Shown one piece after another: positions 473 through 5,133 of a stretch of DNA of 5,133 nt. The position numbers and the translations under genes were made by a program. A model generated the notes under the pieces. That model saw nothing but the letters and a program-made list of their open reading frames with translations, searched no databases and was not told where the DNA came from. The stretch covers positions 620 through 5,752 of the forward strand of contig MIAC01000222.1 of assembly GCA_001830475.1 (NCBI GenBank), in the 5' to 3' direction. The stretch is from Rhodospirillales bacterium RIFCSPLOWO2_12_FULL_67_15. GTDB lineage: Bacteria; Pseudomonadota; Alphaproteobacteria; Rhodospirillales; 2-12-FULL-67-15. The number at the start of each line of letters is the position of its first letter. Within the stretch, counting starts at the first letter, position 1.

Positions 473-479
473 CGCGTGC

Positions 480-495
480 AAGGCCGCGCGGCCTT
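480..495. repeat. 16-bp perfect palindrome
   Basis: AAGGCCGCGCGGCCTT is its own reverse complement. It lies in the gap between the VOC gene and the small secreted protein. It could be a dimeric regulator site or a GC-rich coincidence. A second small stem, GCCGGA (513-518) with TCCGGC (524-529), follows and abuts the ATG at 530, where it could affect translation initiation. No function is shown by the sequence. Confidence 0.35.
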
Positions 496-529
496 GACAA
501 GCAACCCCGCGCGCCGGATGCTTTCCGGC

Positions 530-865
530 ATGCCGCGCGCGGTCCGTTTGTTCCTGGTCCTGGCGCTCCTGCTGGCGCCCATCCTCCATCCGACGGCCCT
601 GGCCGCCCCGGGGCCGGCTGTCGGTTCCGTTCAGCACTACTCCGGCAACGATGACGGAGATGGAGATCACGGCGGGTCCGGGCTGCTGCACGGCTTCGGA
701 GTCCCTGCTTCGTGCGTCGGCGCGGGAGCGTGCGATCTGCAGACGATTCTGACGAGCGATGCGCCGGCGGGTCGAACCGCGACCCTCATCCATGATGTTC
801 GCCTCGACGCGCTGATCGGGCTCGACATATCGCCCGACCCCTCGCCGCCGCGCGTTTCCTTCTAG
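530..865 (+). CDS. small secreted protein of unknown function, possibly metal-associated
   Basis: From ATG 530 this encodes 111 residues. The first 25 form a textbook Sec signal peptide: MPRAVR, a hydrophobic core LFLVLALLLAPIL, and an ALA-AP cleavage site. The mature part has an acidic/His/Gly-rich patch (HYSGNDDGDGDHGGSG), a Cys-x5-Cys pair (CVGAGAC) and a proline-rich end (PDPSPPRVSF). I do not recognise a named family. The layout of short secreted protein, His-rich patch, one Cys pair and a C-terminal 'PPR' resembles unnamed small periplasmic proteins often found beside copper or heavy-metal genes; this is an impression, not a match. It ends 62 bp before the oxidase subunit II gene on the same strand, so a periplasmic role linked to copper supply or to the complex is a reasonable inference. 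In-frame alternative starts are ATG 518 and GTG 476. None has a clear ribosome site, and 530 was chosen because it gives the most compact signal peptide. Confidence 0.65.
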   Translation: MPRAVRLFLVLALLLAPILHPTALAAPGPAVGSVQHYSGNDDGDGDHGGSGLLHGFGVPASCVGAGACDLQTILTSDAPAGRTATLIHDVRLDALIGLDISPDPSPPRVSF

Positions 866-927: not shown

Positions 928-1584
928 ATGACTGATGTTGCGCGCGCGGACTCCGGAAAAAGGCATTTCACCACCCGTCGCGGTTTCGTCGCGGCCGTAG
1001 GGTTCGGCATCGTCGGCCTCTACGGCCTGTGGGCCGGGTACGGTGCGGCGCCTTTGCCTTTCCTCGGCGGGTCCCACGAACCCGTGGCGGGCGAAGGGGA
1101 CGCGCACGGAATTGCCGGGGGCGGCCACGGCGCGGGCGGGGTGTCCTCGCCCGAGGAGTTTCGCCGCGGCGTCGAGGAGTTCGCCGCCCGTTACCGCCAG
1201 CCCGACGGCAGCGTCCGCCCAAGCGCGGCGGGCGGAGCGGCGGGCGCGCACGCGAGCCACGGGATGGACCACGCGGTGGACCAAGCGGCGGAAGCCGCCG
1301 GCGGTCCCGACGACGTTTACCTGATGGCCTATCAGTGGGGCTTCGAGCCCGCCGTGCTGCGGCTCGAAGCGAACCGGCCCTACCGCCTGCGCATGATGGC
1401 GGTGGACGTCTCCCACGGCGCGGCGATCCAGCTCGGCCGTGGCAGCCGGATCGTGCGCCTTCGCACCAACACGTTGGTCGAGCAGACGACGACCTTCGCC
1501 CGCCCCGGCGAGCATCTCGTCTATTGCACGGTCTATTGCGGCCCCGGCCACGCCCGGATGCAAGGCCGTCTGATCGTGGCCTGA
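928..1584 (+). CDS. ba3-type cytochrome c oxidase subunit II (CuA protein)
   Basis: This 218-residue membrane-anchored protein should receive electrons from a periplasmic donor and pass them to the heme-copper subunit. The C-terminal cupredoxin domain (about 128-218) carries a complete CuA set: H163 in VDVSHG, then C200, C204, H208 and M211 in CTVYCGPGHARM. The residue whose backbone carbonyl binds copper (Glu in aa3, Gln in Thermus ba3) is V202 here; a backbone ligand tolerates that. A single hydrophobic segment at about 19-38 anchors it, as in ba3 enzymes, whereas aa3 subunit II has two helices. The segment is preceded by TTRRGF, which resembles a twin-arginine motif. Between anchor and CuA domain lies a linker of about 80 residues rich in Gly, Ala and His (about 48-128). 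It makes the protein about 50 residues longer than Thermus ba3 subunit II (168 by memory). AAGGAG at 915-920, 7 nt before the ATG, fixes the start. The stop is 10 bp before the subunit I start. Confidence 0.92.
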   Translation: MTDVARADSGKRHFTTRRGFVAAVGFGIVGLYGLWAGYGAAPLPFLGGSHEPVAGEGDAHGIAGGGHGAGGVSSPEEFRRGVEEFAARYRQPDGSVRPSAAGGAAGAHASHGMDHAVDQAAEAAGGPDDVYLMAYQWGFEPAVLRLEANRPYRLRMMAVDVSHGAAIQLGRGSRIVRLRTNTLVEQTTTFARPGEHLVYCTVYCGPGHARMQGRLIVA

Positions 1585-1594: not shown

Positions 1595-3346
1595 ATGAGC
1601 TACGATTTCGCCAAGCGTCTCGGCGCGTTGCCCGCCGCCGACAAGGCGCTGCTACTGACGCTGGCCGGGTTCGCGCTGCTGGCACTTCTGCTCGGGCTCG
1701 GCTTCGGCATGGCGACCGGCCTGGTGCGCGGCGGTTTCCTCGCCGGCCTCGACGACGAAACCGGATACCGGCTGATGACGCTGCACGGCGTCAACGCGTT
1801 TTTCTATTGGCTTTCGTTCGCGCAGGCCTTTCTCCTGCTTGCGCTGACCGTCGGTCATACCGGCGGGGCGAGCCGGATCGCCGCGCGCCCCGCCGCCTGG
1901 GCTGGCGCCGGCGCGATGATCGCGGGTTTCGGTTTGAGCGAGGCCGGCGCGATTTTCGGCCCGGCGCTGCTCTACGACGCGCCGCCCGAGCTGGCGATGG
2001 ACCCGTCGTTGGCGTTTGCCGCGGTCCACGGCGGTTATCTCCTGCTCGCCGCCGGGCTGTTTCTCGTCGCGTGGGCTGCAGTCGCGACCGCGCTGGAGCT
2101 CCAGCGCGAAACCGGCGGGGAATGGTCGACGGTCGAGTTCGCCGCCGTGGGCTGGGCGGGGCTTTTGATGGTCAGCACGATCGCCGCCTTCAACGCCTTC
2201 CTGCCCGCCTTGCTCTGGGGTTTGGGCCTCGCCGCGTCGCCCGCCGATTACTCGACCGCGTGGCACCTTCTCTTCCACAACATGCACTATCTGCCGCTGC
2301 TGGCGACGGTGGTGGTGTGGTACGCGCTGGTGCAGTGGTTCACCGGCGTGCGCTCGGCGTTCGGGACGACTTTTTCGAAGATCGCGTTCGCCGCCTACCT
2401 CGTGTTCGTCCCGCCGACCTCGCTCTACCACATGTTCCTCGAGCCCGACCTGCCGGGAACGGTGCGCACCCTCGGCTCGCTGCTCTAGCTCTTCATCGGC
2501 GTCCCGACCGTGCTCGTGTTCCTGGTGCTGACCTCCTCGCTCGAAATCGCCGCCCGAAAGTCGGGTGCGCGCGGGCTGTTCGGCTGGATCGGGCGCCTGC
2601 CGTGGCGTCATCCGGCGATGGCGGCGATCGGCGCGGCGGTGGTGAATTTGGCCCTCGGCGGGGTGTTCGCGTTCGTCCTCATCCAGGAAAAACTCGCGCC
2701 GCTGCTCAGCGACACCTTCATGGTCCCCGGCTATTTTCATTTTCTCACCATCGGCACGGTGACGCTTTCGTTTCTCGCCGGTTTCGTCGTCGCCGGGCCT
2801 GCGCTTTCCGCCCGGCCGATGCGGGGCAGCGCGTGGCTGGTCCGGCTGCCGTGGCTCGCGACCCTCGGCCTCGCGGTTTTCGGCGCGGCCGGCGTCGCCG
2901 CCGGCTACTTGGGCGTGCCCCGGCGCACGATCTCGGTCGCCTACGAAGGGCTGGCGCCGCCTGTATGGTCGGCGCTGATGGCGGGCGTCGGCACCGGCGC
3001 AGCGATCATGGGCGTCGCCATGATCGCCTATGTCGCGATCGTCGCGGTTTCGTTGCTAGCCCCGGCTCGCGCGGGCGACCCCCGGGTCGAAGAGCCCGGG
3101 GGCCCGCGCGCTTATCGAGATGCGCCCCTATCGGGGCGCGCCGAAGCCGGTTTGCCCGTCGCGCCGGGAGGCGCGCAACCCGCAGGCGTCGTTTGGCGCG
3201 GAGACGGGACGGTGGCGGCGGAGCGCGCCTGGGTCGGGCCGCTCGCCGTGCTCGTCCTGATCGCGGCGATGTACGTTTTTACCGCGCTTGCGTTCAACCT
3301 CATGCACGCGCTCCCCACCGTCGCGCTCGGCGGCGGCGGGCATTGA
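1595..3346 (+). CDS. B-family (ba3-like) heme-copper oxidase subunit I, interrupted by in-frame TAG, with altered active site
   Basis: One reading frame of 583 codons, counting the TAG at codon 298. An automatic caller would split it at 2486-2488 into 1595-2488 and a piece starting at GTG 2510. Both halves align end to end with Thermus ba3 subunit I (562 residues by memory). Shared landmarks are TLHG (61-64), SSLE, GLFGWI..LPW, VPG-x-FH (377-382) and VPRR. Alignment from the CuB pair to the heme helix is gap-free. H64 and H382, the low-spin heme ligands, are present. H228 and Y232 (FHNMHY) match the CuB His and the cross-linked Tyr. Y278 replaces the first His of the CuB His-His pair; H279 keeps the second. 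Y380 replaces the high-spin heme His. K-channel and propionate positions also differ. A hydrophilic linker (about 490-543) precedes the last helix. Membership of the superfamily is near certain. Oxygen reductase activity is doubtful. It could be a diverged reductase, a non-catalytic electron carrier, or a decaying gene. Confidence 0.88.
2486..2488 (+). other. in-frame amber stop within oxidase subunit I
   Basis: TAG at codon 298 falls between SLL and LFIGVPT, in the helix just after the CuB His pair. The frame continues for 285 more sense codons of clear subunit I homology. Single-base neighbours include CAG (Gln), TCG (Ser) and TTG (Leu). The next in-frame start, GTG 2510, has no ribosome site upstream, so independent translation of the second half is unlikely. 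Confidence 0.9.
3069..3109. repeat. long hairpin inside the subunit I linker
   Basis: GCGCGGG (3069-3075) pairs with CCCGCGC (3103-3109), and inside it CCCCCGGG (3079-3086) pairs with CCCGGGGG (3095-3102) around TCGAAGAG. A 3-nt bulge separates the two stems, giving 15 pairs in all. It lies in the coding sequence for the hydrophilic linker before the last membrane helix, 11 bp ahead of a second palindrome at 3121. Two adjacent strong stems in a poorly conserved loop suggest inserted palindromic DNA, not selection on the protein. Confidence 0.55.
3121..3143 (+). repeat. palindromic repeat, intragenic copy
   Basis: Its core GCGCCCC-TATC-GGGGCGC is a 7-bp stem with a 4-nt loop. The 23-bp unit matches the minus strand of 5053-5075 at 22 of 23 positions (T for C in the loop). 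A partial copy at 5120-5133 reaches the window edge. It is read in frame as part of the subunit I linker (around DAPLSGRAE). Confidence 0.65.
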
Positions 3347-3359: not shown

Positions 3360-3554
3360 ATGACCTTCGATGTCCGCCTGCTCGCCGCCGTCGCCGTCGT
3401 CTGGGCGGTCATGGCGGCGCTCTACGCCACCGTGCCCATGCTCGCGCATATGCCGGGAAGCGCGATGCTGTGGGGCTCGGGCGCAGGCGTTTTCGCCCTG
3501 CTCGCGGGAGCGGCGTGGATCGCCGAGCGACGCAAACGCGGCGAAAACGGCTAG
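3360..3554 (+). CDS. small two-helix membrane protein, probable accessory subunit of the oxidase complex
   Basis: It encodes 64 residues starting 13 bp after the subunit I stop. Hydrophobic segments lie at about 5-27 ([21 protein letters not shown]) and 35-54 ([20 protein letters not shown]), with a short loop LAHMPG between them and a basic tail ERRKRGENG. By the positive-inside rule the tail should face the cytoplasm. I recognise no named family. Its size, its topology and its place as last gene behind subunits II and I suggest a small structural subunit, comparable in role to subunit IIa of Thermus ba3 (34 residues, one helix) or to other small oxidase subunits. That is inference from context. 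Its TAG stop shares the bases CTAG (3551-3554) with the stop of the converging rho gene. Confidence 0.75.
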
Positions 3555-4807
3555 GCATTCATCGAATCGAAGAAGCCGGCGTTGTTCTTGGTTTCTTTCA
3601 GCTTGCCGAGCAGGAACTCGATCGCGTCCGAGACGCCCATCGGCATCAGGATGCGGCGCAGCACCCACATCTTGGAGAGCGTCGCCTTGTCGACCAGAAG
3701 CTCTTCCTTGCGCGTGCCCGACTTGGTGATGTCGATCGAGGGGAAGGTCCGCTTGTCCGAAAGCTTGCGGTCGAGAACGATCTCCGAATTTCCGGTGCCC
3801 TTGAATTCCTCGAAGATCACCTCGTCCATGCGCGAGCCGGTGTCGATCAGCGCGGTCGCGATGATGGTCAGCGAGCCGCCGTCCTCGATGTTGCGCGCGG
3901 CGCCGAAGAAGCGCTTGGGCCGCTGGAGCGCGTTGGCGTCGACGCCGCCGGTCAGCACCTTGCCCGAGGACGGCACCACCGTGTTGTAGGCGCGTGCGAG
4001 CCGGGTGATCGAGTCGAGCAGGATCACCACGTCGCGCTTGTGCTCGACCAGGCGTTTCGCCTTCTCGATCACCATTTCCGCGATCTGGACGTGGCGAGTC
4101 GCGGGCTCGTCGAAGGTCGAGCTCACCACCTCGCCCTTGACCGAACGGGCCATGTCGGTCACTTCCTCCGGCCGCTCGTCGATCAGGAGCACGATCAGGT
4201 AGCATTCGGGATGATTGGCGGAGACGGAGTGCGCGATGTTCTGCAGCATCATCGTCTTGCCGGTGCGCGGCTGCGCGACGATCAACCCGCGCTGGCCCTT
4301 GCCGATCGGCGTGATGAGATCGAGAATCCGCGAAGTGAAGTCCTTGGTTTTCGGGTCCTCGACTTCCATCTTGAGGCGCCGGTCGGGATAAAGCGGCGTC
4401 AGGTTGTCGAAGTTGATCCGGTGGCGCACGTTCTCGGGCGGCTCGAAATTGATGGTGTTGACCTTCAAGAGCGCGAAGTAGCGCTCGCCGTCCTTGGGCG
4501 AGCGGATCTGACCCTCGACCGTGTCGCCGGTGCGCAACGAGAAGCGGCGCACCTGGGAGGGGCTGACGTAGATGTCGTCGGGGCCGGGGAGATAATTGGC
4601 CTGGGGCGAGCGCAGGAAGCCGAAACCGTCCTGCAAAAGCTCGATCACGCCGTCGCCGAAGATCGGCACGTCGTTGTCGGCGAGCTGCTTCAGGATCGCG
4701 AACATCATGTCCTGGCGGCGAAGCGCGCTCGGGTTCTCGATCTGCAGCTCCTCGGCATAGGCGAGAAGTTCGGCCGGGGTTTTGGCCTTGAGGTCCTTGA
4801 GATTCAT
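3551..4807 (-). CDS. rho: transcription termination factor Rho
   Basis: A complete 418-residue Rho (E. coli has 419). This hexameric RNA-dependent ATPase and helicase binds C-rich nascent RNA and releases RNA polymerase. The N-terminal helical domain covers about 1-45. The cold-shock-type RNA-binding domain (about 48-120) contains the RNP motif DGFGFLR (60-66). The ATPase domain has Walker A PRTGKT (180-185), Walker B VVILLDS (260-266), the Q-loop SSGKVLTGG (280-288) and the R-loop KGTGN (336-340). RIRNA-loop features such as SGTRKEELL are intact, so it should be functional. The start is ATG at 4807 (minus strand). Upstream RNA is pyrimidine-rich with no Shine-Dalgarno match, but homologous Rho proteins begin with the same MNLKDLK. 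In many alphaproteobacteria rho is followed by mnmE/mnmG; here the next gene downstream is on the opposite strand and the ends overlap by 3 to 4 bases. Confidence 0.98.
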
Positions 4808-5052: not shown

Positions 5053-5075
5053 CGGCGCGCCCCGGTAGGGGCGCA
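5053..5075 (-). repeat. palindromic repeat, intergenic copy
   Basis: On the minus strand its core is GCGCCCC-TACC-GGGGCGC. It is the 22/23 partner of the copy inside the subunit I gene at 3121-3143. It forms the outer part of the left arm of the larger inverted repeat at 5062-5133. Confidence 0.65.
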
Positions 5076-5133
5076 ATATTTGGCGCGCGCGGGGATTCCG
5101 TTGTTGGCCCGCCAAATATTGCGCCCCTACCGG
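5062..5133. repeat. perfect 24-bp inverted repeat, REPIN- or MITE-like element, cut by window edge
   Basis: The left arm 5062-5085 and the right arm 5110-5133 are exact reverse complements. Each holds TAGGGGCGC or its complement plus an AATATTTGGCG segment, and a 24-bp spacer separates them. The right arm runs into the window end, so the true element is probably longer; the left side continues through the palindromic unit to 5053. Two inverted copies of a short palindromic unit around a spacer is the layout of REPIN elements; a small MITE is the alternative. Confidence 0.7.

What the first reader, a model, noticed from the sequence alone, without database searches (positions are those of the whole stretch)
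2426..2740. Heme-copper oxidase subunit I with the high-spin heme His and one CuB His both read as Tyr
The alignment to Thermus ba3 subunit I from the CuB His-His pair to the VPGHFH helix has no gaps over about 105 residues. In it, FHHQF reads LYHMF (Y278 for ba3 H282) and VPGHFH reads VPGYFH (Y380 for ba3 H384). The low-spin heme ligands H64 and H382, the CuB candidates H228 and H279, and Y232 remain. The high-spin heme ligand is essential in O2 reductases and, as far as I know, retained in NO reductases of this superfamily. A Tyr there would mean a Tyr-ligated heme, a lost heme, or new chemistry. With CuA intact in subunit II, this could be an undescribed HCO branch.
Basis: partly seen in the sequence, partly recalled or inferred. 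Interest (0 to 1): 0.85.

Follow-up and report, generated by a model that had tools for sequence, protein, structure and literature searches.

The report
Oxidase relative missing its catalytic heme
Various bacteria, among them the soil genus Azospirillum, carry a conserved relative of the oxygen-breathing enzyme cytochrome oxidase in which the histidine that normally holds the reactive heme is replaced by tyrosine (in a few by alanine, valine, threonine or asparagine) and the neighbouring metal-site residues are changed, so it has likely lost that heme and would do a different, still unknown chemistry, possibly on nitrogen oxides.

Summary
In 359 aligned rows the residue matching ba3 H282 is Tyr in 359 and the one matching the high-spin heme ligand H384 is Tyr in 349. 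The other ten have T, A, V or N, needing at least five changes on a tree, so this Tyr is probably not an obligatory heme ligand. Low-spin heme ligands (H64, H382), H228, H279 and Y232 are invariant, and a new invariant His (H231) joins them. Thirty-two rows from six other oxidase and NO-reductase groups all have His at both columns. The Tyr proteins form one clade (support 100) on the B-family side. Best reading: a heme-copper branch (CuA + low-spin heme + rebuilt metal site) that likely lost its high-spin heme. The substrate is unknown; nitrite-reductase genes in 12 of 13 genomes weakly suggest NO. The main comparative paper (Murali 2024) was not held, so an earlier description cannot be excluded.

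The parts
928..1584 (+). CuA subunit II homolog, 218 aa; twin-arginine-like N-terminal anchor (TTRRGF), His-rich linker, C-terminal CuA motif CTVYCGPGHARM
   Evidence: ORF; weak CoxB match, below cut-off. CuA pattern CxxxCGxxHxxM beside subunit I in 17 of 18 loci examined; in the 18th, L046, the Met is one residue further on. RRGF or RRSF in 14 of those 17 loci and in L046
1595..3346 (+). HCO subunit I homolog (583 aa if read through), interrupted by one in-frame TAG
1784..1786 (+). H64, low-spin heme ligand
   Evidence: 355 of 355 ungapped rows, 4 rows gapped
2264..2278 (+). H224-x-x-F227-H228: H224 replaces the Trp (ba3 W229) of other groups, F227 replaces the O2-channel glycine (ba3 G232), H228 = CuB ligand H233
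   Evidence: H224 344/359, F227 359/359, H228 359/359; other groups mostly W/G/H, with S at 224 and L or V at 227 in some rows
2285..2290 (+). H231-Y232: new invariant His at ba3 V236, then the active-site Tyr (ba3 Y237)
   Evidence: both 359 of 359; column 231 is V or Q in the other groups
2426..2431 (+). Y278-H279: Tyr for CuB ligand H282, then retained CuB ligand H283
   Evidence: both 359 of 359
2486..2488 (+). in-frame TAG
   Evidence: uninterrupted copy P0002
2696..2710 (+). A368 and S372 at ba3 D372 and H376 (heme a3 propionate side)
   Evidence: A 359/359, S 358/359; column 372 is His in the B, eNOR, cbb3, cNOR and HPAVY rows and H or S in the A rows
2732..2734 (+). Y380 at the high-spin heme ligand H384
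   Evidence: Y 349, T 5, A 3, V 1, N 1 of 359
2738..2740 (+). H382, second low-spin heme ligand
   Evidence: 359 of 359
3360..3554 (+). 64-aa one-helix protein, third gene of the operon
   Evidence: the A. brasilense counterpart finds matches in 15 of 18 loci (L007 and L047 are probably one genome); the window's own copy, L046 and L050 were not matched; the window copy is assigned by position and length
476..865 (+). small secreted protein upstream; possible counterpart of a Cys/His-rich protein upstream in Azospirillum
   Evidence: 31% identity in a 4-row alignment with 8 invariant columns; no Pfam match; not matched by tblastn with the A. brasilense protein; weak

Best explanation
This is a conserved branch of the heme-copper oxidase superfamily that has replaced the high-spin heme ligand and one CuB ligand and has likely lost the high-spin heme, so that a predicted CuA centre and low-spin heme would feed electrons to a rebuilt metal site, predicted to be made of three His and two Tyr. 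Shown from sequence: subunit II keeps a full CuA motif in 17 of 18 loci; subunit I keeps both low-spin heme His; H228, H231, Y232, Y278 and H279 are invariant; the heme-ligand column is Tyr in most members and Ala, Val, Thr or Asn in a few lineages. Inferred: the high-spin heme is absent or not held by the protein; H231 takes over as a metal ligand for the lost H282; the site holds copper; electrons run cytochrome c or cupredoxin -> CuA -> heme b -> this site. Guess only: the substrate is a nitrogen oxide such as NO, not O2, because the ba3 O2-channel glycine is an invariant Phe, three of the five K-path residues leading to the site Tyr are lost, and the genomes usually carry a nitrite reductase.
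For: Column counts over 359 rows. At least five changes between Tyr and other residues at column 380 on a FastTree tree built without that column; A is shared by three rows (two of them the same protein) and T/N by a clade of four. Rows of six other groups (A 5, B 9, eNOR 9, cNOR 3, cbb3 4, HPAVY 2; 32 in all) have His at 278 and 380 throughout; the Tyr rows are one side of a branch with SH-aLRT 100 and a stem of 1.89 changes per column. ba3 H384 is the heme a3 ligand, G232 lies in the O2 channel, and T315-Y248-T312-Y244-S309-Y237 is the K-path (PMC3141039, passages). Here T312 -> mostly V/A, T315 -> mostly V/I, Y244 -> mostly V, while Y248 stays Tyr in 353 of 359, S309 -> Thr and Y237 stays Tyr. 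CuA motif in 17 of 18 loci. Nitrite reductase (PF02239 at E<=1e-80, or NirK over cut-off) in 12 of 13 Tyr-type genomes. In the 100-genome relatives set, 8 of 9 with against 43 of 91 without (one-sided Fisher p 0.018, not corrected for kinship).
Against: Y380 is kept in 349 of 359 rows, so it matters for something; a Tyr-ligated heme in most members with a changed site in a few is possible. In the one Ala380 lineage whose operon I could read (L046), the CuA Met is shifted by one residue, so that lineage may have altered function; the subunit II genes of the V, T and N lineages were not seen. In ba3 itself several H376 and D372 substitutions keep proton pumping (PMC10766771, passages), so their loss alone does not show heme loss. 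AlphaFold confidence is low exactly around the site (365-378 under 50; 271-300 about 60-66), and no cofactor was placed. The nitrite-reductase link is weak: 17 of 20 Tyr-negative genomes picked from the same families also have one (a set enriched in eNOR carriers), G074 has none, and PF02239 also matches non-NirS proteins (recalled). In the four Azospirillum loci the operon lies beside heavy-metal efflux genes. NosZ was found in 3 of 13 Tyr-type genomes.
Confidence: 0.47

Rival explanations
1. The high-spin heme is kept and ligated by Tyr380 (a tyrosinate-ligated heme facing a changed CuB), giving catalase-like or low-potential chemistry; the few A/T/V/N members have lost or altered function.
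For: Y380 in 349 of 359 rows; the R443/R444 pair is kept in 358 of 358 ungapped rows; the Ala380 member at L046 also has a shifted CuA Met.
Against: At least five changes at the Tyr column, mostly to non-ligating residues, with the other subunit I site residues unchanged; ba3 H376 and D372 positions are also lost.
Confidence: 0.27
2. A metal-handling electron-transfer complex (for example Cu or another heavy metal redox-cycled at the rebuilt site), part of metal resistance rather than respiration.
For: In the four Azospirillum loci (L091, L122, L123, L006) the operon lies near a CusA/CzcA-type efflux set (TIGR00914, 767 bits, over cut-off, for the L091 copy); the nearby ICMT-type methyltransferase recurs at L046 (66% identity). 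The window's subunit II linker is His-rich.
Against: With the L091 proteins as queries, CusA/CusB/TolC homologs were found only in the three other Azospirillum loci, not in the remaining 15 of 18 loci searched, though four of those 15 hold only about 4 kb. SCP2 and U32-domain genes lie near the operon at L045, with similar ORFs at L047, which I recall as anaerobic ubiquinone-synthesis genes.
Confidence: 0.15
3. A catalytically dead remnant kept for structure or sensing (a redox or NO sensor).
For: Two of the six classical metal-binding His are gone.
Against: A new His is gained and fixed, five site residues are invariant, and the CuA subunit and small third protein recur with it; a sensor would not obviously need CuA.
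Confidence: 0.1
4. The window copy is a decaying pseudogene and the substitutions are decay.
For: In-frame TAG at 2486-2488.
Against: The Tyr residues are shared by hundreds of relatives; an almost identical uninterrupted copy exists; codon-position GC is similar after the TAG. Whether this one genome's stop is real or an assembly error is open.
Confidence: 0.03

Closest known systems
Thermus thermophilus ba3 / Aquifex B-family cytochrome c oxidase
   Different: H384 and H282 are not His, V236 is His, G232 is Phe, T312/T315/Y244 of the K-path are lost, H376/D372 are Ser/Ala; 22-23% identity
eNOR (Gln-type B-related NO reductase), also in this genome at G000:C208
   Same: On the same side of the tree (node joining them 97); CuA-type two-subunit enzyme
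   Different: eNOR has Gln at the site Tyr (31 of 31 rows kept) and keeps His at both Tyr columns
cNOR/qNOR, sNOR, gNOR, CuA-NOR
   Same: Superfamily and possible NO link
   Different: Defined by E, N, D or N at the site Tyr (PMC8756737 Table A4, passage); here it is Y, and the 3 cNOR rows aligned keep both His. No sNOR, gNOR, qNOR or CuA-NOR row was aligned
nNOR and other unread families of Murali et al. 2024
   Same: May include divergent CuA-type HCOs (recalled)
   Different: Paper not held; comparison not possible

Membership tests
Heme-copper oxidoreductase superfamily | HCO subunit I fold / PF00115 | tested here: met
Heme-copper oxidoreductase superfamily | bis-His low-spin heme site | tested here: met
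   H64 355/355 ungapped, H382 359/359
Heme-copper oxidoreductase superfamily | proximal His of the high-spin heme | tested here: not met
   0 of 359 have His at column 380
Heme-copper oxidoreductase superfamily | three canonical CuB/FeB His | tested here: not met
   column 278 is Tyr in 359 of 359; extra His at 231
B-family (ba3) O2 reductase | K-path residues T315, T312, Y244 | tested here: not met
   mostly V/I, V/A and V at these columns (residues from PMC3141039)
B-family (ba3) O2 reductase | CuA subunit II | tested here: met
   CuA pattern in 17 of 18 loci, shifted Met in L046
B-family (ba3) O2 reductase | His-Tyr cross-link at the active site | not testable with these tools
   residues H228 and Y232 are present; the bond itself cannot be seen in sequence
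eNOR | Gln at the active-site Tyr | tested here: not met
   Y232 in 359 of 359; definition from PMC8756737
cNOR/qNOR, sNOR, gNOR | Glu, Asn or Asp at the active-site Tyr | tested here: not met
   Y232 in 359 of 359; definitions from PMC8756737 Table A4
nNOR (Murali et al. 2024) | active-site pattern of that family | not tested
   paper not held; no reference sequence obtained

The most novel reading that the evidence does not exclude
A branch of the heme-copper superfamily has thrown away its catalytic heme and works with the copper side alone: a low-spin heme wires CuA to a membrane-buried His3-Tyr2 copper site (H228, H231, H279 with Y232 and Y278), perhaps a radical-copper centre resembling galactose oxidase (that comparison is recalled, not tested).
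Probability: 0.33. Interest if true: 0.92.

Novelty: new variant of a known kind. Interest (0 to 1): 0.75.

Why it matters
[quoted passage not shown] A conserved clade in which the heme-ligand column is free to vary would show that the heme can be dropped while the metal half is rebuilt, and would separate what the heme and the copper each do. Where the relatives bear a name in public data it is mostly a cytochrome c oxidase name, so genome surveys may count them as oxygen respiration. Azospirillum brasilense carries one with the same site residues, so the question can be tested in a harmless laboratory organism.

Tried and rejected
Private decay or sequencing error: rejected by the family counts. 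'Only HCO of the genome' argument: the PF00115 search found only the Tyr-type gene in G051 and G076, both with NirK. But both have a ctaB-like gene at a contig end, and in G071 coxB/coxA-like genes lie next to ctaB after one further ORF, so an ordinary oxidase is probably just missing from these bins; argument dropped. NOR complementarity: none of 5 NirK+ Tyr+ genomes (G496, G051, G076, G097, G666) showed a recognised NOR (fragments L082 and L085 unclassified), against eNOR-like matches in 9 of 12 NirK+ Tyr- genomes. But G002, G034 and G088 (NirK+ Tyr-) also show none, two of them in family f8 with four of the five; confounded with lineage and not used. FNR-box scan upstream of subunit II: one perfect TTGATCTGGATCAA (L051) and one weak site (L045) among the 14 of 16 loci that printed; not used. 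Phylum-wide sample: only the window's own genome of 398 had the gene at E<=1e-40, so no distant intermediates were found. In one search three of 34 eNOR candidates (L026, L031, L038) were dropped because the pattern P[GA]HFH was not found in them. In one search, 18 of the 359 Tyr rows were used, and L134 gave no row. The protein searches scored about 8000 candidates each and list the best 120 of 764, 767 and 789 matches; the rest were not seen. Paper searches for an earlier description (open-licence papers only) gave none; Murali 2024 was unavailable. All papers cited were seen as passages only.

Full report
What is in the window. The window lies in contig C222 of a genome in 290 contigs, 76.8% complete. 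On the + strand: the end of an ORF that looks glyoxalase-like by eye, a small secreted protein (476-865), a CuA-type subunit II (928-1584), an HCO subunit I frame (1595-3346) and a 64-residue one-helix protein (3360-3554). Facing them is an ORF at 3551-4807 whose product looks like transcription terminator Rho (by eye). The subunit I frame carries one in-frame TAG at 2486-2488, between the two Tyr codons of the finding. The database protein P0002 is uninterrupted and otherwise differs from the window's reading at one residue. I therefore treat the family as functional and leave open whether this one copy is broken or mis-assembled.

Check of the observation. The HMMER alignment to Thermus ba3 has no gap from the TM7 region through the VPGYFH helix and puts H228 on H233, H231 on position 236, Y232 on Y237, Y278 on H282, H279 on H283, Y380 on H384 and H382 on H386 (chain numbers less a tag of seven).

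Is it a property of a family? Three searches of 5.8 billion proteins (the best 120 listed each time) gave 345 distinct database proteins; with 14 genome loci this makes 359 rows. One row (P0002) is the intact copy of the window's protein, and two loci repeat or nearly repeat database rows (L016 and P0124; L017 and P0122). Column counts: H64 355 of 355 ungapped; H228, H231, Y232, Y278, H279 and H382 359 of 359; H224 344; F227 359; Y380 349, with T 5, A 3, V 1 and N 1. On a FastTree tree built without column 380, at least five changes between Tyr and not-Tyr are needed. Ala occurs in three rows, two of them the same protein, and Thr/Asn in a clade of four rows, so these are not single sequencing errors.

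Comparison with other HCO families. A 52-row tree holds A-type oxidases, a second group with HPAVY, cbb3, cNOR, eNOR and B-type rows, a divergent paralog pair, and 18 Tyr-type rows. Group labels come from motifs seen and, for B, from the plasmid records' annotation; two of the 9 'B' rows (L135, L136) fall with eNOR. The 32 rows of the six ordinary groups have His at 278 and 380. The Tyr rows are one side of a branch with SH-aLRT 100, joined at 97 to the part holding eNOR, on a long stem (1.89). The program warns that long branches meet elsewhere in the tree, so the exact sister group is uncertain. Position 372 (ba3 H376) is Ser in 358 of 359 Tyr rows and His in the other groups, except that A rows show H or S, which may be an alignment slip. 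In ba3, H376, D372 and a heme a3 propionate form one network, yet several substitutions of the two residues keep pumping (PMC10766771, passages). The O2-channel glycine (ba3 G232; PMC3141039, passages) is an invariant Phe. Of the K-path residues in that paper, T312, T315 and Y244 are lost, while Y248, Y237 and (as Thr) S309 remain.

Operon and subunit II. Subunit II with the CuA pattern CxxxCGxxHxxM lies beside subunit I in 17 of 18 loci. In L046, which has Ala at column 380, the motif reads with the Met one residue further on, so this lineage is changed in CuA too. A twin-arginine-like RRGF or RRSF is seen in 14 of those 17 and in L046; L042 and L043 have HKGF, and L122 showed none in the frame read. 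The third gene is matched in 15 of 18 loci. No NCBIfam model matches subunit I at E 0.001.

Distribution. 13 of 297 genomes of the order have the Tyr type (matches at E below 1e-100), and only the window's own genome of 398 drawn from the phylum (E<=1e-40). Names given by database sources include Azospirillum, Caenispirillum, Rhodoferax, Rhodocyclaceae, Ideonella, Competibacteraceae, Pseudolabrys and Devosia. The pattern is scattered.

Function clues. Nitrite reductase genes (PF02239 at E<=1e-80, or NirK over cut-off) occur in 12 of 13 Tyr-type genomes; G074 has none. In the 100-genome relatives set it is 8 of 9 with and 43 of 91 without (p 0.018, uncorrected for kinship). In 20 Tyr-negative genomes picked from the same families it is 17. 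PF02239 also matches related non-NirS proteins (recalled), so some counts may be those only. NosZ occurs in 3 of 13. In the four Azospirillum loci the operon lies near CusA/CzcA-type efflux genes. These clues disagree, and the substrate remains a guess.

How it most likely works. Because the H384 column tolerates Ala, Val, Thr and Asn while H228, H231, Y232, Y278 and H279 do not change in 359 rows, the selected function appears to reside in the metal half of the old binuclear site, and the high-spin heme is likely gone. H231, one turn from H228 on the same predicted helix, is the obvious replacement for the lost H282. Electrons would enter at CuA and pass through heme b to this site. The altered channel and proton path argue against O2 reduction coupled to cytoplasmic protons. 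That the reaction involves NO or another nitrogen oxide is my weakest inference.

Novelty. I found no description in the papers searched. PMC6431628 (passages) describes B-type relatives lacking the catalytic Tyr, a trait the eNOR group here shares; in the passages seen it does not mention Tyr at the heme-ligand column. Murali et al. 2024, which names several uncharacterised HCO families (recalled), was not available, so a catalogue entry there is possible.

Noticed in passing
L005 (own genome G000:C94:6778-7974) and L119 (G002:C65): A 455-residue PF00115 relative upstream of a coxB-like gene shows the reverse loss: the aligned heme His columns (64, 380, 382) are kept while the CuB pair reads Ile-Asp. 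Alignment of such a divergent protein is uncertain.
   Followed up: partly
window about 3057-3170 and 5053-5133: A GC-rich palindromic repeat (TGCGCCCCTATCGGGGCGC core) sits in frame inside subunit I and recurs inverted at 5053-5075 (RNA fold z -2.5, 3 of 200 shuffles as good). Protein-level matches of the same stretch lie elsewhere in the genome at C222, C256 and C99; P0014 carries a like insert by eye.
   Followed up: partly
L091:2081-10401, with parts in L122, L123 and L006: In Azospirillum the operon neighbours a CusA/CzcA efflux set, DUF2933 and LTXXQ proteins, an ICMT-type methyltransferase and a small Cys/His-rich secreted protein.
   Followed up: partly
G000:C208:4477-5787 (L003): The same genome has an eNOR-type HCO (HSSQQ at the site Tyr) followed by a gene that looks SCO-like by eye.
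   Followed up: no
L046:9848-10597 (subunit II of the Ala380 lineage): The CuA Met is displaced by one residue (HDRTM instead of HxxM), the only one of 18 loci with a changed CuA motif, in the same operon that has Ala at the heme-ligand column.
   Followed up: partly
L051, 121 bases before the subunit II Met: Perfect FNR-like palindrome TTGATCTGGATCAA.
   Followed up: no
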